From: Acholeplasmatales bacterium
GTDB taxonomy: Bacteria; Bacillota_I; Bacilli_A; Acholeplasmatales; Acholeplasmataceae
Reading direction: 5' to 3'
DNA length: 34,351 nt
NCBI GenBank assembly: GCA_003249785.1
Contig: QKIB01000034.1
Location: 1-34,351 of the forward strand
The notes under the pieces: generated by a model
What the model was told of the DNA's origin: nothing
Seen by the model: only the letters and a program-made list of their open reading frames with translations
Databases searched by the model: none
Translations under genes and position numbers: made by a program
In this document: positions 1 through 18,332 of the stretch, piece after piece
Position numbering within the stretch: position 1 is the stretch's first letter
Layout: the number at the start of each line of letters is the position of its first letter

Positions 1-1471
1 GCGCATTACGCCATTTTTCATCATTGACTTCAATCAGTTCACAAAGTGGTCTGACTCTGACATCTTTCTGATAGTGACTGGATAAGCCGTCATTGATTGC
101 CCGAATCAGATTTTCAACATAGATTGGATAAGTCTTCACATGACGTTTAAGTTGATTTAAACGTTGCCCAGATGCTCTAATCTGTTCAGATAAATCGCGT
201 TTTTCTGATTCCAATTTGTCTTTTTCAATATGAAATGCCTGAAGATAAGATTGCACTTCAGTATTGAGGAGTGTCAAATGATGGGTCAAATCATCTGAAG
301 TGATCTGATCTTCATTGGTCTGATAATAGTTGACGAATTCTTTGATGGTGACATTGGGCAGCAAATTCAGAAGTTCTTTCATCGTATTGAATTCTTTAGA
401 AAGTAAATCCTTAACAGCACGCAGTGCTTCTTTTTGTTGTTCGTATTCCTTGGATTTCTTTTGAAGTGCTTCTTGATAACTGGATAAGGTACGTGATAGA
501 TCGTTATCATTTTTTGCACGTTCCAAATTCAAGATCGCTTGGTCGTTTTCTTCAATTTGTGTATCAACTTGCGATTTTGCTTCTCTTAAGTAGTCCAAAC
601 GACCTTCGATTTCCGAAAGTCTTTCCTGGTTCTGTTTGACATAAGACTCACGTTTTTCAACCCAGTTCAACTGATCAATGAGTTCATTGATGCCTTGTTG
701 TTCTTTATTGAGTGTGATATCTTCACCGGTTTGAACAATCAAATCCAGCTTTTCAAGTTTTTCCTTATCACGTTTAATCTGAAGTTCAACTTTCTTCAGT
801 TGAGCCACATTGTTTTTAAGGGATTGAATATCGATGGGATCGTCATCTAGCAAGAATTCAAAGACAAATGCTTGTAAGTCAATGGATCTGAATGCAAGTG
901 CTTTAGGCAGAATCTTCGCATACTTCGTCGCATCCATCCCAAAGAAACGTGCAAGCGCATCTCGATATTTTTTCTGTGAGTCAAACGGAGAAAATTCGAT
1001 GTCCAAAGACTTTAGGTAAGCTTTCATGCTCTTGTAATCTCTTGGATATTTCTTTTCGAGAAATAGACTGTCATGGATGGAAACATTATCTAAAAGATAA
1101 AATCTTTCTTTCAAATTGGATGATTTGGGCAAATCTAAGATACAACCGATGGTTGAGAATTTCTTACTCTGCTCATCAAAAAACTCCAATGCAAGATGGG
1201 TGATGACATCACCATTTCGCAAGTATTCCTTGTTTTCAGCACCAATTCGTCCTCTGATATATCCTTCAAGGGTACGTTTGGCATCATCGGTTGCTGCAAT
1301 ATTGAATTTGGATCCTGCTCTGCCACCGACAAACAAAAACTGCATGGCATCAAGGAGCGTTGACTTACCAGATCCGTTTTCACCTGAGATCAGTGCATTA
1401 TCCTTGATCTCAATCGTTTGATTGGAAAATAGGTGCCAGTTGACTAGCTTAATCTTCGTCAGTTTCTTCAT
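1..1471 (-). CDS. jetC: Wadjet JetC-like (MukB/SbcC-type SMC ATPase), N-terminal ~490 aa, truncated by window edge
   Basis: Manual translation of the minus strand from ATG at 1471: MKKLTKIKLVNWHLFSNQTIEIKDNALISGENGSGKSTLLDAMQFLFVGGRAGSKFNIAATDDAKRTLEGYIRGRIGAENKEYLRNGDVI..., followed by ...KILPKALAFRSIDLQAFVFEFLLDD and a Lys/Glu/Gln-rich coiled coil. Frame appears open to position 1. Walker A is GENGSGKST. Overlaps the jetB 3' end by 23 nt. Missing from the ORF track because it runs off the window. Confidence 0.88.
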   Translation of the reverse strand, partial: MKKLTKIKLVNWHLFSNQTIEIKDNALISGENGSGKSTLLDAMQFLFVGGRAGSKFNIAATDDAKRTLEGYIRGRIGAENKEYLRNGDVITHLALEFFDEQSKKFSTIGCILDLPKSSNLKERFYLLDNVSIHDSLFLEKKYPRDYKSMKAYLKSLDIEFSPFDSQKKYRDALARFFGMDATKYAKILPKALAFRSIDLQAFVFEFLLDDDPIDIQSLKNNVAQLKKVELQIKRDKEKLEKLDLIVQTGEDITLNKEQQGINELIDQLNWVEKRESYVKQNQERLSEIEGRLDYLREAKSQVDTQIEENDQAILNLERAKNDNDLSRTLSSYQEALQKKSKEYEQQKEALRAVKDLLSKEFNTMKELLNLLPNVTIKEFVNYYQTNEDQITSDDLTHHLTLLNTEVQSYLQAFHIEKDKLESEKRDLSEQIRASGQRLNQLKRHVKTYPIYVENLIRAINDGLSSHYQKDVRVRPLCELIEVNDEKWRNA

Positions 1472-2087
1472 CTTCGTCAGAACCTCCTTCCACATAGCCT
1501 TCCAGTTTTTGGACAACCTCTTTGATACTGTCGAGATTGGTTACATAAAGGATGGTTGGATAGATTTTGATACGGGCATCATCATGAAGCCCTTTATCGA
1601 TATAGTCAATAATGTTGTACGTTCTAAGAAAACTCAAAGCGGGTTTGAGCTTATCTTTGGTGATTCGTTTGTGATCGAGATAACCGATTCTAGTGAGTTC
1701 ACTATGGATTTCATGCAAGTAGATTTCAACATTTTCATCTAAAGTGACAAAATCTTTTTTTCTCTGATAAATGATTCTGATGACCAAAATCATGAGACTT
1801 TCTGTTTTTCTGAGTCTCATATGGTTATAGAGATTATCATTCTTGATATGAACGACTTCGTCTTCACGATAGACATCCATTGAAAAATCAGTCAACGTGA
1901 AAAATGCTTCAAAAAGATCCTTATAGGCAAGAATAAACCGATAATCATTGGTATCACCAGGTTTTTTCTTGGTGATGAAATTGACTTGAAACAATTTGTT
2001 TGTAATTCTTGAGAAGATGGTTTTTTCACCTTCTTTAAGGGTTACAAAGATGTCATTGAATTGTTTAGCTGCTGCTGTCTTATTCAT
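1449..2087 (-). CDS. jetB: Wadjet JetB-like (MukE-like, DUF4194 family)
   Basis: 212 aa ORF between JetA-like and JetC-like genes, ATGA overlap with jetA; acidic C-terminal tail GGSDEDEETDED. Confidence 0.85.
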   Translation of the reverse strand: MNKTAAAKQFNDIFVTLKEGEKTIFSRITNKLFQVNFITKKKPGDTNDYRFILAYKDLFEAFFTLTDFSMDVYREDEVVHIKNDNLYNHMRLRKTESLMILVIRIIYQRKKDFVTLDENVEIYLHEIHSELTRIGYLDHKRITKDKLKPALSFLRTYNIIDYIDKGLHDDARIKIYPTILYVTNLDSIKEVVQKLEGYVEGGSDEDEETDED

Positions 2088-3466
2088 GCTTTTACCTCTT
2101 TGATTCTAAAGTTTTGGAAGGTAACATAGTTATTTCTGATTTCCTTACCGAGTGGAACGACATCATAATGCATGCCCACAGATTTGGAATAAAGGAAAAT
2201 CAAGATAAGTCTCACGTAATCTTCTTGGGTTTCAAGACTAATCTGAGATGCATCAATCGATGGATTACCATCCAAAAGCATTTTCACATGCTGATCAATT
2301 TCCTTTTTACCGTAAATATTGTTTTTAAGGAGTGCCTTGATCTTTTCTTGACGATACTCATCAGAGATGAGATCTTCATCAAAGGTGATTTCTTCAGCAA
2401 TCGTATCGATGCGCATTCTTCTTTGATTGTATAACGATCCGGTATCGACATTTCTTGCTTGAGTCAGGTAGAATAACTGCGTATAATCGAAATCTCTTTG
2501 ACCTAAAACGATCTGGAAGAGTCTGTTGAAAATCCCTTCAATATCGTCTGATTGGTTTGTGAAAAAGAGAATTTTAGCCGCTGCTGCACTGATGTATTGT
2601 TCATTCTTTCTGTCAATTGCCAGAATTAAATGCTCGAGTGCTGTAAAGCTTTCAGTGATGAATCGAAGTCTGTCTTCAATATAGAGAAAGGCTTCATTAT
2701 AATCTTCGATACGTTTAATCTTCTGAACCATCAATGCCAGATTATCCATGATCTGTTCATCGTTTTGAATTTTGGAAATGGATTCTAAAATAGCGCGTTT
2801 ATATCTGGGTAAACTGTCTGTGGTTTTTAAGTTATAATACGCTGAATCAAAGAAGTTTTGTTTATACTCAACGAGTAGCTTTTCTAATAAAATCTGTAAA
2901 TCTTGTTTGGATTGTTTTTTAGTGATGTCATAATAATAGCGGTAGATATTCGCCTTGAGGGACTTCAGTTTTCTAATGATGTCATTGGTCTTTTGATAAG
3001 CTTGTTCTAAGACACCTATCCCTTCATCGACTGTAAAAGAAGACAAAAGAGAATACACAGTGAAAATCTCACCTGTATACTCACTTTGGCGATTGTTTTG
3101 GATACCTTCTAGAATATCGATAATTTGGATGGAATAATCAAAGAGATTGAGTGATGTTTTATAATCACCAAGTTCTTCTTCACCCAGCCATCCGTTGCGC
3201 TTAAGAACGTTAATGACATGCAATGCTTTTTGTCTGCTGGTTCTTGCTGGTTCGTCTTCATCAACATCAACAAACTCTTCTGTGGTTTGTTCATCAAAAT
3301 AATCGACGAGCCTTGAAACGATAAATTCTCTATCCCCCTGATAAGCATCTTCGATACTGTCAATTGCCCGATAAATGATAAAAATACAATCGATGTATGT
3401 TTTTTTATTAGGGGAGGAAAGCACACTAAAAAAATTACTGTTGATCTTGTCAAAGAGATGTGCCAT
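2084..3466 (-). CDS. jetA: Wadjet JetA-like (MukF/kleisin-like, DUF5716-type)
   Basis: Likely start MAHLFDKINSNFFSVLSSPNKKTYIDCIFIIYRAIDSIEDAYQGDREFIVSRLVDYF; ATG at 3466 preceded by an AAAGGAGG SD. Track start at 3535 looks too early. Gene order A-B-C as in Wadjet. Confidence 0.86.
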   Translation of the reverse strand: MAHLFDKINSNFFSVLSSPNKKTYIDCIFIIYRAIDSIEDAYQGDREFIVSRLVDYFDEQTTEEFVDVDEDEPARTSRQKALHVINVLKRNGWLGEEELGDYKTSLNLFDYSIQIIDILEGIQNNRQSEYTGEIFTVYSLLSSFTVDEGIGVLEQAYQKTNDIIRKLKSLKANIYRYYYDITKKQSKQDLQILLEKLLVEYKQNFFDSAYYNLKTTDSLPRYKRAILESISKIQNDEQIMDNLALMVQKIKRIEDYNEAFLYIEDRLRFITESFTALEHLILAIDRKNEQYISAAAAKILFFTNQSDDIEGIFNRLFQIVLGQRDFDYTQLFYLTQARNVDTGSLYNQRRMRIDTIAEEITFDEDLISDEYRQEKIKALLKNNIYGKKEIDQHVKMLLDGNPSIDASQISLETQEDYVRLILIFLYSKSVGMHYDVVPLGKEIRNNYVTFQNFRIKEVKA

Positions 3467-3494
3467 CAGATCCTCCTTTATTTTTATAAAATAA

Positions 3495-3540
3495 AAAATA
3501 TGAATATCATATTCATTGTAACATGAAATACTCATATTTT
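3495..3540 (-). promoter_or_regulatory. Putative jetABC promoter (extended -10 TGTTACAAT, + strand 3515-3523) with inverted repeats
   Basis: AAAATATGA (3495-3503) and TCATATTTT (3532-3540) are perfect inverted arms around the -10; a smaller ATGAATA-TCA-TATTCAT palindrome lies at 3500-3516. Confidence 0.5.
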
Positions 3541-3554
3541 CTATGTTTTTTCGA

Positions 3555-5186
3555 TTATTTGTTTCGAATGATGGCTATCTTGATTTTCTTGCCATTGAAG
3601 AATTTGCCGTTTACTGCATCTAGGCGTTTGATAGCTGCTGGATGAATCTGGAATTCTGTCTGGTTTTCACCAATGACGATATCACCGACATTTTTAGGAT
3701 ACATATCCGCATTTTTCTTGAAATAATCAAGCAAGGTCACTGGACGGATGCCGTCTTCTTTACCTAAATTGATACTTGCGAGCTTATATAATCCTTGTTG
3801 ACGTTTGTTCTGATATTCGCCTTGTTTGCGATCTTTTTTGAATGTGCCTTGTGAAGCTTCATGACGTTTTTTCGCTGGGATTTCAATGGGTTCATAGGTC
3901 TTCTTTTCTATGGTTTGCTTGGAAAGAAGGGCATTGATGATCGCTTCATCGTCAAATCCGTCTTGATGCAATCTTTCGATAACATCATCATAACTTGATT
4001 CGTTCTTTGAGATGATTTCCTTTAGCTTCTTGTAATTTCTTGCTTCTTGCTTTTCGATGATGTCAGTTTCTGATGGAATTTCCAATTCAGTCATCTTGGT
4101 CTTGATGTAACGCTCAATCATCTGGAGTTTACCTCTCATACTTGGATAAACCAAGGAAACAGATAATCCAGATTTGCCGGCACGACCGGTTCTACCGATT
4201 CTGTGGACATAGACTTCGTCTTCAAATGGAATTTCATAATTGATGACCATATCGACATGAGAGATGTCTAACCCGCGCGCAGCAACATCAGTAGCAATCA
4301 GATATTTCAGTTTCTTCGCTCTGAATCTGTTCATGACATAGTCTCTTTGACTTTGCTTCAAATCCCCGTGAATCGCATCCGCTTCATAATCATGTTTTTG
4401 AAGGTATGCAGATAGATTGTCAACATCTACTTTCGTATTGGCAAAGATGATTGCTGAATTAGGATCATAATAATCCAATAATCTAATCAAGAGATGATCC
4501 CGATCTGATTTTTTGACTTGATAATAAATCTGGTCTGTTTTAGAAACGGTTAACGTAGGTGTTTCAATTTGAATAATCTCAGGTGATTTCTGATATTTTT
4601 GAGCAACCTTCTTGATGAAAGGTGGAATGGTTGCTGAAAACAATGCGGTCTGTCTGTCTTTTGGTGTGTCTCTTAAGAGTGTTTCCAAGTCTTCTTGAAA
4701 GCCCATCTTTAACATTTCATCCGCTTCATCTAAAACGAGAATCTTCAGATTACTGAAATCTACAGTATTCCGATTCAGGTGATCAATCGCACGTCCTGGG
4801 GTTGCTACGACAATCTGTGGATTCATCGACAACGCTTTAAATTGCTTGTTGTAAGATTCTCCACCATAAATTGCAGTCACTTTGACTGCCTTGTTGAATT
4901 TGACGAGTTTCAAAAATTCTTTATAAACTTGAAGCGTCAGTTCTCTGGTTGGACAGATCACTAATGCTTGAACGGCTGTTTCATTGGCATTGATCTGTTC
5001 TAAAATCGGGATGGCAAAGGCAAAGGTTTTGCCTGTTCCCGTTTGTGCCTGGCCAATCAAATCTTTCCCTTCGAGCATCTTGGGAATGGCGTGATGCTGT
5101 ATGGATGTTGTTTCTATGAGTCCCAAAGATTCGATTGCCTGTTTTGTTTCTTCTAAAATGGGTAAATCGTTAAATAAAATGTTCAT
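3555..5186 (-). CDS. DEAD-box ATP-dependent RNA helicase (CshA/DeaD-like) with C-terminal DbpA-type RNA-binding domain
   Basis: AQTGTGKT, PTRELTLQV, VLDEADEM, SAT, VHRIGRTGRAG motifs; C-terminal domain ...DYFKKNADMYPKNVGDIVIGENQTEFQIHPAAIKRL...; start MNILFNDLPIL with a GAGGAAAA SD. Confidence 0.95.
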   Translation of the reverse strand: MNILFNDLPILEETKQAIESLGLIETTSIQHHAIPKMLEGKDLIGQAQTGTGKTFAFAIPILEQINANETAVQALVICPTRELTLQVYKEFLKLVKFNKAVKVTAIYGGESYNKQFKALSMNPQIVVATPGRAIDHLNRNTVDFSNLKILVLDEADEMLKMGFQEDLETLLRDTPKDRQTALFSATIPPFIKKVAQKYQKSPEIIQIETPTLTVSKTDQIYYQVKKSDRDHLLIRLLDYYDPNSAIIFANTKVDVDNLSAYLQKHDYEADAIHGDLKQSQRDYVMNRFRAKKLKYLIATDVAARGLDISHVDMVINYEIPFEDEVYVHRIGRTGRAGKSGLSVSLVYPSMRGKLQMIERYIKTKMTELEIPSETDIIEKQEARNYKKLKEIISKNESSYDDVIERLHQDGFDDEAIINALLSKQTIEKKTYEPIEIPAKKRHEASQGTFKKDRKQGEYQNKRQQGLYKLASINLGKEDGIRPVTLLDYFKKNADMYPKNVGDIVIGENQTEFQIHPAAIKRLDAVNGKFFNGKKIKIAIIRNK

Positions 5187-5255
5187 GCTTTTCCTCAATT
5201 CTTATAAACCTTGAATACTATACCACATTCATTGATAAAATACTATCAAAACCAT

Positions 5256-5276
5256 AAAAAAAGACTCAAAGAGTCT
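5256..5276 (-). terminator. Intrinsic terminator of FrnE-like gene
   Basis: Minus strand AGACTC-TTT-GAGTCT followed by TTTTTTT; abuts or overlaps the TGA stop. Confidence 0.8.
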
Positions 5277-5911
5277 CATTTTTCACAATTTTCGCCTTCG
5301 CAGTATTCATTCTTCGTATATTGTGCACTCGCTCTGGCAAGTTGCTGTAGTAAAGCCTTGTATGGATGGTATCCATTCAATCTGATTTTACCGTCAATAC
5401 GCATGTGTGGAAGCTCGAAAATCCCTTTTAAAATCGCATTTTCACGGTTGGACTCGACAGCGTTTAAATACTGATCAGAAGCTAAAACTTCTTCGACATG
5501 ATTGATGTCCAGACCTGATTCTACAGCAATGGACTTTAAAACCTCATGATCGCTGATATCTTTGTTTTCTTCGTAAAATGCTTTAAAGACATTCTTGTTG
5601 AACAAGAATGCACAGTCTTCTTTCTTCGCCAAATGGGATAAACGGTGTGCATCACAAACAGGTACAGGCTTGATGTCCGGATGAATTTCAGGCAGAATCT
5701 TTCTCGCTTCTTCAATTGAGATCACATGGTGTTTACTCAAGATCACATCAAAAGAACAATCCTGTTCTGGTTCAAAGTATGGAATCATCTCATAACTGCG
5801 GTATAAGAGTTCAAGATCTTTGAAGATGTAGTTGTCAAAAAGTGTCTCAAGACTCTTGTGCTGCAAATAGCAGATAGGGCTTAAGTAATCTAGCCAAAAT
5901 TCCAGTTTCAT
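5276..5911 (-). CDS. DsbA/FrnE-like thioredoxin-fold oxidoreductase
   Basis: MKLEFWLDYLSPICYL... (position of the usual CPWC), MRIDGKIRLNGYHPYKALLQQL, C-terminal CEGENC tail typical of FrnE/DsbA-like proteins. Confidence 0.75.
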   Translation of the reverse strand: MKLEFWLDYLSPICYLQHKSLETLFDNYIFKDLELLYRSYEMIPYFEPEQDCSFDVILSKHHVISIEEARKILPEIHPDIKPVPVCDAHRLSHLAKKEDCAFLFNKNVFKAFYEENKDISDHEVLKSIAVESGLDINHVEEVLASDQYLNAVESNRENAILKGIFELPHMRIDGKIRLNGYHPYKALLQQLARASAQYTKNEYCEGENCEK

Positions 5912-6001
5912 GTATACTCCTTAAATCATTCAAAGATAATCTTTGATTATATCTATTATAGAATCTCTACTTTGACTTGTCAAAAGAGTCGACTTGAAAG
6001 C

Positions 6002-7483
6002 CTATTTTTCCTTTTGAAAAACAACTTTTTCATCGATAATCGTCCATAAAACTTTTGTGGTTTCAAACTCGGGTTCCGAGAGTTTTTCAAGGTCTTTTTC
6101 AAACCCAGTCAAATCAGCAATATACCCTTTTTTCAAATATCCTCGATTGGACTTCATCGTTGAAAACTGTACGCTCGTCGTATAGAGTTTAATCGCATCA
6201 AAGATTGGTATCGCTTCTTTTAGTCCATATGCCTTGTGGTCATGATCAGAAATCCGATAAACGAGTGCACGAATGCCTAATAAGGGATTAGGAATTTCAA
6301 TAGGTGCATCTGAACTACCTGCAAGAATGATGTTGTGATCAAGTAATGTTTTCCATGGGAAAACAAGTTCAGGGGTCTTTTCAAAATAATCAAATGCCCA
6401 AGGGAGATCACTTGATAAAAATTGTGGTTGGATATCAATAGATAATGCCATGCCTTTGAGGTAATCCGGTGTCTTTTGATCCATCCATGGTGTATGAATC
6501 AGACGGTCAAACTGACCTTGTTTCGGTGGATATTTCTTTAAAATCTCAATGACTTCCAAAACTCCTTGATCTCCGATCACATGAATCGCTGCCGTCAGAT
6601 GATGCGCTCTCACTTTCTGGATCATTCGCTCAAATTCCAGCTTTTCATGAATTCTGAGTCCATGCATATCTGTGTTGCGATAGGGTGCTTTCATCAGAGC
6701 AGTTTTCGATGACACAGTTCCATCATAAAACATCTTGATAGATCCAAGCTGTAAATAAGGTGTCTGATCCATGTATGTTCGACCCGACTTGAGGAAGTCA
6801 TCCAAAACATGATGATGCACCAAAAGATGTGTTCTAAAGGGTATGACATTGAGAACTTCATCAAAGACAGAAAGTGTTTCATCGAAACTGTTGTAGTAAG
6901 AAAGATCATCAGAGTGACCACCAGTGATGCCAAAAGCATTCAATTTTTGAATGGATTTTTTCAAAAAATCCTTGAGATCTTCAAAAGTATGCGGCGGAAA
7001 AAGACGCATCGCTTGTTCTGCGCTTTCTTCCGTTAGAACGCCATCTTCTGATTCGTAATCCATCATGTTAAGGACTGCATCGTTGACCGTAAGGCTATGG
7101 TAATCATTATGTCTGACCATAATCAGTTCTTTATTGCTGATTTGATTCAAATCAGATTTGGTGAGTCCACATTCAAAATAACCTTCTGCAAATAACGGCT
7201 TATCTTGATAGGCTTTTTCTAAGATAGCAATGACTTGATCTTTATCCTTGATTTTATTGAGGTTGGGTCTTGAAAGCATTCTGCCATAACCTAAAAGATG
7301 TAAGTGAGCATCAACAAACCCAGGGTAAATGTGTGCACCTTTCAAATCGATAATCTCATCAAAAACTATCCCATCTATGTCATCATCAAATCCGACGATT
7401 AAGCCTTGATCGGTTGCCATTTGATGTTTGACTGCACCTGGTTTTTCCATAGTATGAAAGATTCCATTGATCCATTTTTTCAT
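6002..7483 (-). CDS. YtcJ-like metal-dependent amidohydrolase
   Basis: GAHIYPGFVDAHLHLLGYG, AAIHVIGDQGV, ILAGSSDAPIEIPNPLLGI, IADLTGFEKD; amidohydrolase_3/YtcJ pattern. Confidence 0.88.
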   Translation of the reverse strand: MKKWINGIFHTMEKPGAVKHQMATDQGLIVGFDDDIDGIVFDEIIDLKGAHIYPGFVDAHLHLLGYGRMLSRPNLNKIKDKDQVIAILEKAYQDKPLFAEGYFECGLTKSDLNQISNKELIMVRHNDYHSLTVNDAVLNMMDYESEDGVLTEESAEQAMRLFPPHTFEDLKDFLKKSIQKLNAFGITGGHSDDLSYYNSFDETLSVFDEVLNVIPFRTHLLVHHHVLDDFLKSGRTYMDQTPYLQLGSIKMFYDGTVSSKTALMKAPYRNTDMHGLRIHEKLEFERMIQKVRAHHLTAAIHVIGDQGVLEVIEILKKYPPKQGQFDRLIHTPWMDQKTPDYLKGMALSIDIQPQFLSSDLPWAFDYFEKTPELVFPWKTLLDHNIILAGSSDAPIEIPNPLLGIRALVYRISDHDHKAYGLKEAIPIFDAIKLYTTSVQFSTMKSNRGYLKKGYIADLTGFEKDLEKLSEPEFETTKVLWTIIDEKVVFQKEK

Positions 7484-7494
7484 GTTTCACCTCA

Positions 7495-7538
7495 AAATAA
7501 AAAGCTCTTACCATGATTTTACCATGAGTTGAGCTTTT
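7495..7538 (-). terminator. Intrinsic terminator downstream of recX
   Basis: Minus strand AAAAGCTC ... GAGCTTTTTATTTT; loop contains a tandem CATGGTAA repeat. Confidence 0.6.
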
Positions 7539-7541
7539 CGT

Positions 7542-8294
7542 TTAGCCAATGACTTTCTTGATGTCCTCGATCTTGAATCCTTTGGCATATAGTTTTTGTG
7601 TGACAAAATAATTGAGTTCTTTTGCTTCTACCTTGTCCTTATATTTTTTCATGAGCTTTTGTGCTTCTTTTTTAATCAGATCAATTTCATTGACCTGATA
7701 ACTGGACAGGTTCTTCTTGATGACTTGATCAACAGCATCTAGAGAAAATCCTTTACGAAGATAATATCCTTTGAGTGTCTGGATCATCTGTTTTTTGGAT
7801 TTGTTCTTAATGGATGCCATCTTCTTCGGCAAACTTTCTTTTAGGATGAATGGTTCATCAATCTGCGATGTCATCTGATCGACAATTTCTTTGGAGATAC
7901 CTTTCTCTCTTAATTTGTTTTCAATGGCTTTGGGTCCATCTGTCGTTTTCTTGAGTTGCGTATAAAGTTTCGCATACTGAACATCATCTAAGTATTTCTT
8001 CTTAATGAAGTCATGAATGAGTTGCTTAATGATGACATCCTTGGCACCTTTCAGAGAAAGGTATGCTTTCATTTCATGGATGGTCATCATACGTTTCAGC
8101 TTTGCAATTCCTAGTTTTTGATAATAGAGATACTCATTTTCTACAATCAAATTCTGATAGGTTTTCTCATCCAGTTCATCCTGAAGTTTGAGATGATATT
8201 TGACCATGAGATCTGGTTCGATTCTAATGGTTTCAACTCCAAAGGTTACATCATAACCCTTAGCCTTTTTTTCAATCGATTTAACCGTCTTCAT
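7542..8294 (-). CDS. recX: Regulatory protein RecX
   Basis: Repeats typical of RecX: AYLSLKGAKDVIIKQLIHDFIKKKYLDDVQYAKLYTQ, KAIENKLREKGISKEIVDQM, GYYLRKGFSLDAVDQVIKK. Confidence 0.88.
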   Translation of the reverse strand: MKTVKSIEKKAKGYDVTFGVETIRIEPDLMVKYHLKLQDELDEKTYQNLIVENEYLYYQKLGIAKLKRMMTIHEMKAYLSLKGAKDVIIKQLIHDFIKKKYLDDVQYAKLYTQLKKTTDGPKAIENKLREKGISKEIVDQMTSQIDEPFILKESLPKKMASIKNKSKKQMIQTLKGYYLRKGFSLDAVDQVIKKNLSSYQVNEIDLIKKEAQKLMKKYKDKVEAKELNYFVTQKLYAKGFKIEDIKKVIG

Positions 8295-8295
8295 T

Positions 8296-9801
8296 TTAGC
8301 TTTCCAAAAGGGTCATCAAATCCTGAAGTTGGTTGTCATATTGAATGTCATTCATTCTTGCCATGTATAAATCATTGATGGCATTTGCAGTTTCTCTATC
8401 TAATATACCATTAACCGTCAAGCCTTGTTCTGTCTGGAAAGTTTCAATGATGCTTTGGGTTGCTGCATCAAAATAGCCATCAGTTCTTAAACTGTTCATC
8501 GTATTTAAACCGTAGTAATAATTAAAGAAAGCTTGATAACTACCTAAGTAAGTTGACACTTCGTCAGTTTGGACTTCTCCGCCATAGACTGGCATTTCTA
8601 ATGCGTGAATGCCTGTTTGTTCAATCTGATTGACAGTCAAAGGATCGGTCATTACATTTTGGTTGTCTCCATAGAACCATTCACCTTCAGTATAAACCAG
8701 TGAATATCGCATATTGTTTAAATCCAATAGATTAATGGTATTTTGATAGACACCTTTGCCATAGGTATTGGTTCCATAAAGTGCATAACCACCATATGAA
8801 CTGAGTGCTGATGCAAGGACTTCTGCTGCAGATGCAGAATGTCCATTGACAAGTCCTACGATTTGGTAAGGCTTAGCAGTTGACAAAGATCCATAGAATG
8901 TTCTGGTATCTCCGACGCGTGGTATCATTTCAAACACCGGTTTTTCAACATTATAGGTAAAAAGTTGCTGAATGATACCTGGAATCAATCCTGATTGATT
9001 GGAATTATGAAGTGCAGTTAGTGCACCGCCTGGATTATCTCTTAAGTCAATGATGAGTGTCTTGGTTGATGGGTCAGTCATCAGACTGTTGGATTCCAGG
9101 GTGTTGAGCACTTCACTGAAAACTTGACTGGTGCCTGGTGTCACATCGGCAACATATCCAGAGAATTTCGTAATCTTGATATATGATAAATCCGCATAAG
9201 GCATGGTGAGACTATAAGCGGTCGGAGTTAAAATTTCCTTATATGTAATATCAACTTGATTCTCATTGCCATCTGGATCTAGTACAATCAAGGTCTTAGT
9301 TTCATCTAGAGCACCAGAAAGATAACTCATAACTTCTGTTTCTGATGAAAGTGTACTAAAGTACAAAGGTGAATTGTCGACAACAATACCTGTCACCAAG
9401 TCATTTGGATATAGTTTATCAACAGCCGCCCCTTGAGGGTAAACATAGGTGATTCTTAAATCCAAATTTTCCATAACAAAACTGACGCCAATGCCAATAA
9501 AGGATTCGTCACCATTGGGTGCAACACTGAGTGAATTCGCAACAAGTCTCGTATAAGGATCATTGTTTGCTTCTCCATATGCTTTGATGGTTGCTTCCAT
9601 TGATGCGACAAAAGCATCTTGAGTCTGTGCATCCGTGATGTCATAGTAATAATAATTCTGGAAAATCTGTGTCAGTGAAGATATTGAATTGATACCGTTA
9701 TTCGTATTGGACACAGGAATCACCTGTTCGATGAAGTATCCTGCAAAGAATGCGACAAGAACACTGAAGATGAATAAAATGCCTAGTTTTTTAGTTCCCA
9801 T
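8296..9801 (-). CDS. S41 family C-terminal processing peptidase with PDZ-like region and C-terminal peptidoglycan-binding-like domain
   Basis: N-terminal TM; LIIDLRDNPGGAL, GHSASAAEVLASAL (catalytic Ser), GTNTYGKGVYQ (catalytic Lys); LRTDGYFDAATQSIIETFQTEQGLTVNGILDRETANAI resembles PG_binding_1. Confidence 0.92.
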   Translation of the reverse strand: MGTKKLGILFIFSVLVAFFAGYFIEQVIPVSNTNNGINSISSLTQIFQNYYYYDITDAQTQDAFVASMEATIKAYGEANNDPYTRLVANSLSVAPNGDESFIGIGVSFVMENLDLRITYVYPQGAAVDKLYPNDLVTGIVVDNSPLYFSTLSSETEVMSYLSGALDETKTLIVLDPDGNENQVDITYKEILTPTAYSLTMPYADLSYIKITKFSGYVADVTPGTSQVFSEVLNTLESNSLMTDPSTKTLIIDLRDNPGGALTALHNSNQSGLIPGIIQQLFTYNVEKPVFEMIPRVGDTRTFYGSLSTAKPYQIVGLVNGHSASAAEVLASALSSYGGYALYGTNTYGKGVYQNTINLLDLNNMRYSLVYTEGEWFYGDNQNVMTDPLTVNQIEQTGIHALEMPVYGGEVQTDEVSTYLGSYQAFFNYYYGLNTMNSLRTDGYFDAATQSIIETFQTEQGLTVNGILDRETANAINDLYMARMNDIQYDNQLQDLMTLLES

Positions 9802-10655
9802 TGTGCTGCCTCCCTGGAAAAACCCAGTCCCAATGCTTCTTTTGTTCTGGTAAAGAATGTAAATGCTTTAGGATCTGCTGCTTTAATGATATGTTTGAAC
9901 TGATAAATCTGCAATCTATCAATCATGCAAATAATCAAGTCTTTTTCAAGTTTGGAATATCCCCCGATGACTTTGACTTTGGTCATGCCTCTTTCCAGTT
10001 TTTCATAAATCGCTTTTTGAATTTCATCGCTGTGATCAGTAACAATAAATGCTGTATACCCTGATTTGCCTTCAATAGATAACCTGTCAACAAGCAGTCC
10101 GCTTAAAATCATGGCACCTACTGCATAAAGCCCGAGTTGGAAGTTCACGAGCATGGCAATCAAAATCACCAAACCATCGGTTAAATACATCGCAAAAGAA
10201 AATGGTATATGAAGATATTTGTTCATGATGTTCTGGATGATATCAACCCCACCTGTGGTTGCGTTGTTCCTAAGAACAACACCAAGTCCGACACCAATCA
10301 AAAGACCACCGAACAATGCGCCAAGTAATAATGGGCTTTCTGTTAAATGCTGCATAAAAAAATTCTTATCAATAGTCAATTCTAAAATCCAAATGATCGT
10401 TGGTGAAAGCAAGGTTGCATAAATGGTCTTGAGGAAAAAAACTTTCCCCAAGAAGATTAAACCGATTAATAGTAAGATAGTATTGGCGATATACATAAAG
10501 GTACTAACGGAAATGTAATTTTGCAATAAGACAGAAACACCCATCACACCTCCAATCACCATGTTTAATGGTAATAAGAAAAAATAGAAACCCAGAGACA
10601 TGATAATGACGCCTGCAGTGATTTCTAAGATTTCACGGACTTTTGCTTTATTCAT
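9783..10655 (-). CDS. YitT family membrane protein (DUF161 + DUF2179)
   Basis: Likely start MNKAKVREILEITAGVIIMSLGFYFFLLPLNMVIGG (10655, or 10661); NNATTGGVDIIQNIMNKY; C-terminal DUF2179 FIVTDHSDEIQKAIYEKLERGMTKVKVIGGYSK. Track start at 10823 runs through the prfB coding region. Confidence 0.92.
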   Translation of the reverse strand: MNKAKVREILEITAGVIIMSLGFYFFLLPLNMVIGGVMGVSVLLQNYISVSTFMYIANTILLLIGLIFLGKVFFLKTIYATLLSPTIIWILELTIDKNFFMQHLTESPLLLGALFGGLLIGVGLGVVLRNNATTGGVDIIQNIMNKYLHIPFSFAMYLTDGLVILIAMLVNFQLGLYAVGAMILSGLLVDRLSIEGKSGYTAFIVTDHSDEIQKAIYEKLERGMTKVKVIGGYSKLEKDLIICMIDRLQIYQFKHIIKAADPKAFTFFTRTKEALGLGFSREAAQWELKN

Positions 10656-11748
10656 GATCATCACCTGCTTTAAGATAAGCATTAATGAAACCATCCAGAT
10701 CCCCATCCATGACCAAATCCACTTGACTAACTTCATAATTGGTTCTGTGGTCTTTGACCATCTGATAAGGATGGAAGACATAAGATCTAATTTGTGAGCC
10801 CCAGGCAATATCCTTTTGCTCACCTTGGATATTTTTCAACGTTTCTTCTTGTTTCTTGATTTCTTCTTGAACAAGTTTTGCTTTTAGAACACTCATAGCT
10901 GCTTCCTTGTTCTTGAGTTGACTACGTTCATTCTGGCAGGTCACGACAATCCCCGTAGGCAGATGCGTGATTCTCACGGCAGAGTCTGTGGTGTTGACAG
11001 ATTGTCCACCTGCACCTCCACTGCGATAAACATCAATCTTGATATCTTCATCTCTGATGTCGATATCGATTTCATCATTGATTTCTGGTAAGACATCACA
11101 AGATGCAAACGAGGTATGTCTTCTCGCATTCGAATCAAATGGTGAGATTCGAACCAATCGATGAACACCGCGTTCCGCTTTCAAATACCCGTAAGCATAA
11201 GGACCTTTGATGAGCATCGTCACGCTTTTAACACCGGCTTCATCACCAGCTTGATAATCGAGGATTTCAACTTTATAGCGTTTTTTCTGGGCATAGCGTG
11301 AATACATGCGAAAGAGCATGTCACACCAATCCTGGGATTCGGTACCACCGGCACCAGGATGTAATTCTAAAATTGCATTACTCGAATCATAAGGTCCATT
11401 CAAAATGGTTTCAATTTCAAATGCCTTAAGTTCTTTTTGCAAAACATCGATATCTGCTTCTAAAAGGACCCATTCTTCTGTACCTTCTTCAGAAAGTTGA
11501 AACCAGTCTTCAAGATTTTTATATTTATTTTTCAAAGACTGGAGTTGATCGAGTTTTGATCGGATATCAGTCGATTCCTTGGTTAATTTTTTGGCGTTTT
11601 TCGTATCGTTCCAGAAATCAGGCTTTTGCATTTCAAGATTCAAAGCTTTGTATTGTTCTTCCAGCTTTGCTGGTTGAAGGGCACGATTGAGATCATCGAT
11701 GGTTTCTTTGAAACCTGCAAGAATCTTATTGACTTCATATGTTTCCAC
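10648..11748 (-). CDS. prfB: Peptide chain release factor 2
   Basis: LHPGAGGTESQDWCDML, RSGGAGGQSVNTTDSAVRITHLPTGIVV (GGQ), RSYVFHPYQMVKDHRTNYE; single uninterrupted ORF. Confidence 0.96.
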   Translation of the reverse strand: METYEVNKILAGFKETIDDLNRALQPAKLEEQYKALNLEMQKPDFWNDTKNAKKLTKESTDIRSKLDQLQSLKNKYKNLEDWFQLSEEGTEEWVLLEADIDVLQKELKAFEIETILNGPYDSSNAILELHPGAGGTESQDWCDMLFRMYSRYAQKKRYKVEILDYQAGDEAGVKSVTMLIKGPYAYGYLKAERGVHRLVRISPFDSNARRHTSFASCDVLPEINDEIDIDIRDEDIKIDVYRSGGAGGQSVNTTDSAVRITHLPTGIVVTCQNERSQLKNKEAAMSVLKAKLVQEEIKKQEETLKNIQGEQKDIAWGSQIRSYVFHPYQMVKDHRTNYEVSQVDLVMDGDLDGFINAYLKAGDDHE

Positions 11749-16429: not shown

Positions 16430-17737
16430 TTAGAAATTATTATACATTTCAGCAAACTCATCGTGGAACTTAAGAAATCTTTCCTTTAAATCATAATCGA
16501 AATAGTTAGCGAGTTCACTTTGATAAAGTTTCATGACCATGGAATGAGCCATTGGTCTTTTAAAGGGTTTCGGTCCTCTCATGGTGATGTAAAGATCACA
16601 CAACAAAATGATTTGTGCTTCGATTTCAGGTTGGATAATGAGCATTTCCTTTAGGAAATTCTCATTGGCTGTATCTTCGATATGCGCTCTTGCGATATCT
16701 TCACACTTCTGGGCAAGCTGCATGCGTTTGGCAATCTGGGATCCAAGTTCAGTCTTTTCTTTGAGCATGTCATAAGTTTGCTCATCAAAGGTGTTCATGT
16801 CATTCAAGAGATTTTTGATTTCCTGATACTGAAGATGAACTAGCGCATATTTGTTCATCGATTCGATCTTTGCTTGTGGCAAGCCATAGTTATTGGCTAG
16901 CTTTTCGCTCATCATTTGGACTTGATGTGCATGTCTTTTGTCCATGAGTGTATAACTGCTGGAAAAGACAACAGAGAACAAGTCACCAACAATATGCGAG
17001 AAATCGCCTTGAACCTGTCGACGTTTGATGAGTTCCTTCTTACGTTCTTCTTGCATATACTGTCCCATTGAAACAATTGCGTAGACAACAAAGTAGAATA
17101 AAATGAATAATAAAGTCCTTAAAAGAATATCACTGAACTCTGGCAATTGCACAAAGGCAGGTAGAAATTCAACAAAGGTTTGTCCGTTGACCAAGCCATG
17201 AAAATTGTAGGTCCAAATCAGATGGATCGCAGTGAGTAAAGCAAGCAGTGCCTGAAAACTACTACTTAATAGTCTTTTCTCCTGATAAAGTGAGATAACG
17301 ACAACTGCATAGTACATTAGAATATAAGCACCTGTTTCAAAATATTGATTTTGATAGAGACGTGCATAAATCAAAACGGATGAGAAGAAAATATAGAACG
17401 CAGCAACATACATCGCAACCATCTGTTTGGTCTTATCCTCAGGATCCATATTGATGAGCTTACGAAGTAATTTATTGATCACATAAGTAAGTGGTAAAGC
17501 AATAATCGTTACAACCCAGTCACTGGTCTGTCCACTGCTTAAAGACAAAATCAATAAAATGATGGAATACATAATATTGGATAAGAAAATGATATTCTTA
17601 ATAACAACATTTCTTCGGTATAACACAGCTGTATCATTGGTAATGTCTACGCCTTGTTCAAAACCAAAAAACTTGGCAAAAATATTTTTACCAAAGGCTT
17701 TCAAATTCAAGATGCCTCGTTTTTTGGGTTCAGCCAC
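16430..17737 (-). CDS. Multi-TM membrane protein with degenerate HD/HD-GYP-like cytoplasmic domain
   Basis: N-terminal hydrophobic segments, then KRHAHQVQMMSEKLANNYGLPQAKIESMNKYALVHLQYQEI...ARAHIED...EAQIILLCDLYITMRGPKPFKRPMAHSMVMKLYQ, which follows HD-GYP spacing without a canonical HD or GYP motif. Confidence 0.6.
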   Translation of the reverse strand: MAEPKKRGILNLKAFGKNIFAKFFGFEQGVDITNDTAVLYRRNVVIKNIIFLSNIMYSIILLILSLSSGQTSDWVVTIIALPLTYVINKLLRKLINMDPEDKTKQMVAMYVAAFYIFFSSVLIYARLYQNQYFETGAYILMYYAVVVISLYQEKRLLSSSFQALLALLTAIHLIWTYNFHGLVNGQTFVEFLPAFVQLPEFSDILLRTLLFILFYFVVYAIVSMGQYMQEERKKELIKRRQVQGDFSHIVGDLFSVVFSSSYTLMDKRHAHQVQMMSEKLANNYGLPQAKIESMNKYALVHLQYQEIKNLLNDMNTFDEQTYDMLKEKTELGSQIAKRMQLAQKCEDIARAHIEDTANENFLKEMLIIQPEIEAQIILLCDLYITMRGPKPFKRPMAHSMVMKLYQSELANYFDYDLKERFLKFHDEFAEMYNNF

Positions 17738-17753
17738 TCATCATCATCCTATC

Positions 17754-18332
17754 TTATAAATCAAATATACTGAAACGTTTAACACCAATATCTTCATGTG
17801 CGATTTCTTCGTTCATGACTTGAGCAACTCTTGTGGATGCTGCTGCTGCAATCGCACCGACGATGTCATCCATGAATGTATGACAGATTCCGTCTTCTTT
17901 TCCGGCATCATTGAGTCGTTTTACAATGCCATGCTTGTTGACGTCAATGTCCCCAAAGTTGGTTTGTCCGATGGTTCCATATAAACCAGAAACATCAAGA
18001 CCCATGGTTTCATCAATTCCGAACAATCCCAGATCTTCATAGATGATGTCTTGGATTGGGCCTTTGAACATGCCTTCTTCTGCCAATCGATCAATTTCTG
18101 CTGCCAGCTGAACGTGATGAAAGACATCACGCAGTGATAAGATCTTTTCTACTGATTCAATACAGATGTCACGAGAGATATCATCTGTATATTTGGATTG
18201 TTGCTGAAATGAAATTTCTGCAATCGCTTCAATGGTCACACCTCGATTAAGTAAAGTCTTTTTATTGAAGTCAAACATTTCCTGTCTTGTAAAGATAATT
18301 TTCTTGGCGTTTTTATGCACCATATGAATCAT
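17754..18332 (-). CDS. Phosphatidylglycerophosphatase A-like (YutG/PgpA) protein
   Basis: LLNRGVTIEAIAEISFQQQSKY, IIYEDLGLFGIDETMGLDVSGLYGTIGQTNFGDIDVNKHGIVKRLND, CHTFMDDIVGAIAAAASTRVAQ. Start could also be MVHKN at 18323. Confidence 0.85.
   Translation of the reverse strand: MIHMVHKNAKKIIFTRQEMFDFNKKTLLNRGVTIEAIAEISFQQQSKYTDDISRDICIESVEKILSLRDVFHHVQLAAEIDRLAEEGMFKGPIQDIIYEDLGLFGIDETMGLDVSGLYGTIGQTNFGDIDVNKHGIVKRLNDAGKEDGICHTFMDDIVGAIAAAASTRVAQVMNEEIAHEDIGVKRFSIFDL

What the first reader, a model, noticed from the sequence alone, without database searches (positions are those of the whole stretch)
1..3540. Left edge carries a Wadjet (JetABC[D]) SMC-type plasmid-defence operon, truncated within jetC
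Seen: three tightly overlapping minus-strand genes. A JetA-like 461-aa protein (MAHLFDKINSNFFSVLSSPNKKTYIDC...) is followed by a JetB-like 212-aa protein, then a JetC-like ATPase with Walker A GENGSGKST and a long coiled coil running off the window. Established: JetA/B/C are MukF/MukE/MukB-like and JetD is a topoVI-like toprim nuclease; Wadjet cleaves circular plasmid DNA. Inference: jetD should lie just left of position 1. The provided ORF track omits jetC entirely, so an automatic reading would miss the ATPase.
Basis: partly seen in the sequence, partly recalled or inferred. Interest (0 to 1): 0.75.

Follow-up and report, generated by a model that had tools for sequence, protein, structure and literature searches.

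The report
Nuclease-less Wadjet motor, likely chromosome condensin
The three genes are real parts of a Wadjet-type DNA motor, but its plasmid-cutting subunit is missing here and in nearly all relatives, which also lack the usual bacterial chromosome-folding machine (Smc-ScpAB), so this 'defence' motor has probably become the machine that organises these bacteria's own chromosome.

Summary
In detail: jetA, jetB and the 5' half of jetC sit at 2-3466 on the minus strand. The defence reading fails. Window position 1 overlaps another contig of the same MAG (C26; 225 bp, 2 mismatches). C26 supplies the rest of jetC (joined length 1091 aa, ATPase motifs intact), and 50 bp later comes pepC, not jetD. 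The order DEAD-box helicase-jetA-jetB-jetC-pepC is conserved across Acholeplasmataceae.

Family-wide, JetA occurs in 68/88 genomes and JetC in 71/88; JetD occurs in 1/88, beside a second, divergent JetABC. Smc-ScpAB is absent (ScpA 0/88, ScpB and Smc none over cut-off). Order-wide: JetA 127/160, ScpA 0/160, JetD 8/160. In a class-wide sample, 102 of 115 JetA+ genomes lack ScpA. All 20 jetABC loci sampled from such genomes outside the order lack jetD. In the sister family f2, jetC is directly followed by the cell-division gene sepF in 11 of 12 core loci.

Best explanation: a JetD-less Wadjet-group SMC complex that serves as chromosomal condensin in place of Smc-ScpAB, analogous to MukBEF/MksBEF. 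This is inferred from genomes; no assay was possible. JetD-less Wadjet-group members are known in general; I found no report for this lineage.

The parts
2084..3466 (-). jetA (kleisin, MukF/MksF-like), 460 aa; start ATG at 3466 with GGAGG upstream
   Evidence: PADLOC JetA1 318 bits; Pfam PF18982 271 bits vs cut-off 26.2; AlphaFold2 model (pLDDT 73.8) matches MukF and JetA chains best in the PDB
1449..2087 (-). jetB (KITE, MukE/MksE-like), 212 aa; overlaps jetA by 4 bp
   Evidence: PADLOC JetB1 214 bits; Pfam DUF4194; AlphaFold2 model (pLDDT 82.3) matches JetB 8dk1/8as8 and MukE
2..1471 (-). jetC (SMC ATPase, MukB/MksB-like), first 490 aa, truncated by the contig end; overlaps jetB by 23 bp
   Evidence: PADLOC JetC1 441 bits; best solved relatives are JetC 8as8 and 8dk2; remaining C-terminal part on contig C26 = L003:3-2030
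1358..1384 (-). Walker A motif GENGSGKST of jetC (signature SGGETQ and Walker B IVLFDEAF are on contig C26, L003:1719-1736 and 1812-1835)
   Evidence: all three motifs conserved in 17 aligned family members
1..225 (.). overlap with contig C26 of the same assembly (223 of 225 bases identical), which carries the rest of jetC and then pepC
   Evidence: same jetC-pepC order on single contigs in L036-L046, L049, L051, L052, L061, L065, L068 (L044 is the exception)
3555..5198 (-). DEAD-box RNA helicase with DbpA-type RNA-binding domain; conserved upstream neighbour, not a subunit
   Evidence: Pfam; conserved next to jetA in most family loci

Best explanation
jetABC here encodes a JetD-less, Wadjet-group (type I-like) SMC complex that works as the chromosomal condensin of Acholeplasmataceae. 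JetC is the SMC ATPase, JetA the kleisin and JetB the KITE. As in other SMC complexes, the motor would load on chromosomal DNA and extrude loops by ATP hydrolysis to fold and resolve the replicated chromosome. Without the JetD nuclease, complete extrusion of a small circle has no cutting consequence, so this is no longer a plasmid-restriction system. Shown: homology, intact ATPase motifs, absence of jetD, vertical and syntenic conservation, absence of Smc-ScpAB. Inferred: loop extrusion, chromosome loading and replacement of Smc-ScpAB function.
For: Subunits and motifs. No jetD: pepC follows jetC; JetD 1/88 in the family and 8/160 in the order. Near-universal: JetA 68/88 and 127/160, JetC 71/88. 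No Smc-ScpAB: ScpA 0/88 and 0/160, ScpB none over cut-off, Smc none over cut-off, while the ScpA model rings in 9 of 14 control genomes and 181 of 395 genomes of the class. Near-exclusion in the class: of 115 JetA+ genomes only 13 have ScpA; 20/20 jetABC loci from ScpA-negative genomes outside the order lack jetD. Within-genome contrast: G023, G096, G109 and G121 carry a jetD-less core jetABC plus a separate jetABCD. Vertical descent: JetD-less Acholeplasmataceae JetC form one clade (58 rows, SH-aLRT 100) that also holds Acholeplasma and phytoplasmas. Jet proteins are more conserved than both flanking genes (85-89% vs 79-80% to G037), dN/dS about 0.03-0.08 where dS is computable. In family f2, sepF and often ileS follow jetC directly. 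Precedent: MukBEF replaced Smc-ScpAB and MksBEF probably arose by loss of JetD (PMC10586767; PMC7617805).
Against: No functional data. Some lineages of the order lack both JetA and ScpA: genus g14, several phytoplasmas, most of family f4 including near-complete G148 (64% of G148 read, no Smc or Jet genes found), so either a condensin is dispensable there or another one was missed. Family f12 keeps Smc-ScpAB beside JetD-less JetABC, so the two are not strictly exclusive. Absences rest on profile searches of MAGs. No JetD-contact residues could be tested: the IFDR motif of JetB is not recognisable even in related JetD-carrying operons.
Confidence: 0.76

Rival explanations
1. Canonical type I Wadjet: jetABC plus a jetD that was lost from view at the contig edge or lies elsewhere in the genome; cleaves circular plasmids.
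For: Best models are PADLOC JetA1/JetB1/JetC1. One close relative (G023, strain MO-XQ) does carry a jetABCD.
Against: The edge is resolved: jetC ends and pepC follows, as in relatives on single contigs. No JetD anywhere in G000 or in 87 of 88 family genomes. The MO-XQ jetABCD is a second copy, only 30-39% identical to the window's proteins, and it branches outside the core clade.
Confidence: 0.04
2. A defence complex that kept JetABC but uses another, unrecognised effector in trans, or that traps or silences plasmids or phage DNA without cutting.
For: The motor is related to defence systems. JetD-less JetABC in f12 coexists with Smc-ScpAB, so a non-condensin role is possible there.
Against: No conserved nuclease-like neighbour: neighbours are DEAD-box helicase, pepC, sepF, ileS, ychF-like GTPase, glgC-like, i.e. 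housekeeping and different per family. Near-universal, slow-evolving and syntenic, unlike patchy defence genes. Lineage lacks any other condensin found.
Confidence: 0.12
3. An accessory chromosome or DNA-repair factor (like MksBEF beside SMC in Pseudomonas) that is not the main condensin; the lineage lives without a main condensin.
For: Genomes without either complex exist in the order. Some phytoplasmas lost jetA and jetC entirely.
Against: Only SMC-type complex detected in nearly all family genomes; operon location next to sepF in f2.
Confidence: 0.08

Closest known systems
Wadjet type I (JetABCD; E. coli GF4-3, P. aeruginosa PA14)
   Same: JetA/JetB/JetC homology and gene order; JetC of 8as8/8dk2 are the best solved sequence matches; JetB fold matches 8dk1/8as8
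   Different: No jetD; core, vertically inherited, syntenic chromosomal locus instead of a patchy defence operon; host lacks Smc-ScpAB
MksBEF (Pseudomonas aeruginosa) and other Wadjet-group members lacking MksG/JetD
   Same: JetD-less Wadjet-group complex; a chromosome role is reported for MksBEF (PMC10586767); several JetD-less members are noted in PMC7617805
   Different: P. aeruginosa keeps Smc-ScpAB beside MksBEF; in Acholeplasmatales the JetABC is the only SMC complex found
MukBEF (Enterobacteria)
   Same: JetD-less Wadjet-group complex thought to have replaced Smc-ScpAB (PMC10586767, PMC7617805); kleisin and KITE folds match MukF/MukE
   Different: Sequence belongs to JetC type I, not MukB (NCBIfam MukB 21.5 bits vs cut-off 699); separate lineage, so a parallel replacement; no MatP link tested
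Smc-ScpAB
   Same: Presumed equivalent role
   Different: Smc, ScpA and ScpB not detected over cut-off in the family

Membership tests
Wadjet (JetABCD) plasmid-defence system | JetA, JetB and JetC subunits in one operon | tested here: met
Wadjet (JetABCD) plasmid-defence system | JetD Toprim nuclease encoded with JetABC | tested here: not met
   pepC follows jetC; JetD absent from G000 and 87/88 family genomes; jetD overlaps or abuts jetC in true Wadjets of related taxa
Wadjet (JetABCD) plasmid-defence system | Cleavage of small circular DNA | not testable with these tools
   needs a transformation or cleavage assay
Wadjet (JetABCD) plasmid-defence system | Patchy, horizontally spread distribution typical of defence systems | tested here: not met
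   JetA 68/88, conserved synteny, one family clade
JetD-less Wadjet-group condensin (MukBEF/MksBEF-like) | SMC + kleisin + KITE trio without JetD/MksG | tested here: met
JetD-less Wadjet-group condensin (MukBEF/MksBEF-like) | Intact SMC ATPase (Walker A, signature, Walker B) | tested here: met
   (motifs split over the two overlapping contigs)
JetD-less Wadjet-group condensin (MukBEF/MksBEF-like) | Takes the place of Smc-ScpAB in the genome | tested here: met
   ScpA 0/160 in the order, Smc and ScpB none over cut-off in the family; exceptions that lack both complexes
JetD-less Wadjet-group condensin (MukBEF/MksBEF-like) | Acts in chromosome organisation or segregation | not testable with these tools
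   only contextual support: sepF adjacency in f2
JetD-less Wadjet-group condensin (MukBEF/MksBEF-like) | Loss of residues that contact JetD (IFDR motif of JetB) | tested here: inconclusive
   motif not recognisable in related JetD-positive JetB either
MukBEF proper | MukB/MukF/MukE sequence family | tested here: not met
   NCBIfam MukB 21.5 bits against cut-off 699; JetC1 best in PADLOC

The most novel reading that the evidence does not exclude
Wadjet motors were converted into condensins several times within this class: JetD-less JetC fall into several family-specific clades (f1; f2+f3+f5+f23+f24; f11+f21+f26+f27; f12; f7; a second f11 group), interleaved with JetD-carrying Wadjets, and all but f12 lie in lineages that lost Smc-ScpAB. 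f12 (Smc-ScpAB plus JetD-less JetABC plus JetABCD) would preserve the intermediate stage. This would be a natural series of 'immune system turned chromosome machine'.
Probability: 0.45. Interest if true: 0.8.

Novelty: new variant of a known kind. Interest (0 to 1): 0.62.

Why it matters
It suggests that Acholeplasmas, most sampled phytoplasmas, and several uncultured gut and environmental lineages fold their chromosomes with a former or sister immune motor instead of Smc-ScpAB. It makes a speculation in the literature (PMC10586767: condensin to Wadjet to MukBEF/MksBEF) testable in another lineage with culturable members, and it warns that automatic defence annotation (JetA1/B1/C1 models hit strongly) can mislabel a core chromosome-maintenance operon as plasmid defence.

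Tried and rejected
Housekeeping MukBEF by sequence: rejected. jetD hidden beyond the edge: rejected by contig C26 and by relatives. JetB IFDR motif as a marker of JetD binding: uninformative. JetA and JetB sequence searches of solved structures gave no hits, so fold comparison was used. The overall TM-scores of the JetA model are low (0.2-0.33), probably because the kleisin's domains are flexibly placed, so that match is supporting evidence only. First impression that phytoplasmas keep jetA alone: corrected, jetB-jetC lie elsewhere in those genomes. Papers on Acholeplasma/Tenericutes/phytoplasma with Wadjet or condensin: nothing relevant found; Petrushenko 2011, which named MksBEF, is not held.

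Full report
What is there. On the minus strand at the left edge of the window lie jetA (2084-3466, 460 aa), jetB (1449-2087, 212 aa) and the first 490 codons of jetC (1471 down to 2), overlapping by 4 and 23 bp, each preceded by a Shine-Dalgarno-like sequence. PADLOC's best models are JetA1, JetB1 and JetC1; Pfam gives 'Wadjet protein JetA' and DUF4194; the closest solved sequence relatives of JetC are JetC of E. coli GF4-3 and P. aeruginosa. AlphaFold2 models place JetA with the kleisins MukF/JetA and JetB with the KITE proteins JetB/MukE.

The edge resolved. The window is contig C65 of a 1.47-Mb, 162-contig MAG. Its first 225 bases match the start of contig C26 in reverse orientation with 2 mismatches. 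C26 carries the rest of jetC with the ABC signature SGGETQ and Walker B IVLFDEAF, stops at base 2030, and is followed 50 bp later by pepC (Peptidase_C1_2) to near its end. Read across the overlap, jetC is 1091 aa, exactly the length in the relative G037. There is no jetD. The mismatches could mean that the two contigs come from slightly different strains, but the jetC-pepC order occurs on single contigs in many relatives, so the arrangement is not an assembly accident.

Whose operon it is. Named relatives identify the family as Acholeplasmataceae: Acholeplasma laidlawii, A. granularum, A. oculi, Haploplasma modicum, Peloplasma aerotolerans and Candidatus Phytoplasma. The order DEAD-box helicase-jetA-jetB-jetC-pepC is kept in genera g1, g10, g12 and g13, with partial versions in others. 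The rest of the window is housekeeping (SecA, RF2, PriA, RecX, PgpA; IF2, NusA and RNase J by reading the translations), not a defence island.

Distribution. In 88 family genomes JetA is found in 68, JetC in 71, JetD in one. That one, G023 (Tenericutes bacterium MO-XQ), has the core jetABC like everyone else and a second jetABC, 30-39% identical to the window's proteins, with jetD attached. ScpA is in 0 of 88, ScpB over cut-off in 0 of 88 and Smc (TIGR02168) over cut-off in 0 of 88, although the same models ring in many control genomes. In the order (160 genomes, 5 families): JetA 127, ScpA 0, JetD 8. In 395 genomes of the class: ScpA 181, JetA 115. Comparing the two lists, both occur in only 13 genomes (7 of family f12, 5 of f17, 1 of f22); the other 102 JetA+ genomes belong to families in which no listed genome has ScpA. 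All 20 jetABC loci sampled from such genomes outside the order lack jetD, as do 15 core loci of f2, f3 and f5, whereas the f17 and f22 operons (except one divergent f17 operon) and the second copies in G096, G109 and G121 have it directly behind jetC. Family f12 has Smc-ScpAB together with a JetD-less jetABC and, in G188, G199 and G216, also a jetABCD.

Descent and selection. On a JetC tree the Acholeplasmataceae sequences, including phytoplasmas, form one JetD-less clade (58 rows, SH-aLRT 100), with the window's fragment inside its own genus. A broader tree puts JetD-less rows into several family-specific clades; at least 8 changes of JetD state are needed, 5 forced by well-supported branches (quick search, so provisional). 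Within the genus the Jet proteins are more conserved than both flanking proteins, and dN/dS is about 0.03-0.08 where dS is not saturated. These are the marks of a core gene.

Context in a sister family. In f2, 11 of 12 core jetABC loci are followed immediately by sepF (PF04472, cell division), often with ileS next and a ychF-like GTPase upstream. No nuclease-like gene is a constant neighbour in any family examined.

Mechanism. From established work on Wadjet and MukBEF (PMC10586767, PMC7617805), JetABC is a loop-extruding SMC motor and JetD is the nuclease fired when a small circle has been fully extruded. Removing JetD leaves the motor. I propose that in Acholeplasmataceae it is the main chromosome-folding complex, in place of Smc-ScpAB. 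Homology, intact motifs, absence of JetD, absence of Smc-ScpAB and vertical conservation are shown; extrusion, chromosomal loading and the segregation role are inferred.

Limits. No experiment bears on it. Absences rest on profile searches of often incomplete genomes. Some genomes of the order lack both complexes (g14, several phytoplasmas, most of f4), so a condensin may be dispensable there or an unrecognised one may exist; reading 64% of f4 genome G148 did not settle this.

Novelty. That some Wadjet-group complexes lack JetD, that MukBEF replaced Smc-ScpAB and that MksBEF probably arose by JetD loss is published. I found no report that Acholeplasmatales and neighbouring lineages use a JetD-less type I JetABC as their only detectable condensin (open-access papers only), so I call it a new variant of a known kind.

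Noticed in passing
L056-L060, L069 (jetA) and L112-L130 (jetB-jetC): In phytoplasmas the operon is split: jetA stands alone and jetB-jetC lie elsewhere in the genome; proteins are diverged (JetA about 33%, JetC 36-40%) but intact.
   Followed up: partly
G046, G047, G049, G055, G063, G064, G065, G069, G072: Several near-complete phytoplasma-genus (g11) genomes have neither JetA nor JetC nor Smc-ScpAB, apparently living without any SMC condensin.
   Followed up: no
L044 (G023:C1:1458000-1476000), 5047-11478: Strain MO-XQ carries a true jetABCD Wadjet in addition to the jetD-less core jetABC: an ideal pair for comparing defence and core versions in one cell.
   Followed up: partly
L173-L182 (family f12, Haloplasma-like): Genomes with Smc-ScpAB, a jetD-less jetABC and often also a jetABCD: looks like an intermediate stage of the replacement.
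   Followed up: partly
L209-L217, L223, L227 (family f2): jetABC is followed directly by the cell-division gene sepF, and often then ileS.
   Followed up: yes
G148 (family f4), L229-L288: A 1.88-Mb single-contig genome of family f4 has neither JetA nor ScpA by profile search; 64% of it was read and only SbcC was found, so what folds its chromosome is unknown.
   Followed up: partly
window 16430-17737 (-): A 435-aa protein with apparent membrane segments and no Pfam match, just left (in coordinates) of the PgpA-like gene at 17754-18332.
   Followed up: no
L123 (Ca. Phytoplasma vitis), G073:C1:482920-483168: A second fragment matching the C-terminal end of JetC lies near the full-length jetC, possibly a partial duplication.
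   Followed up: no
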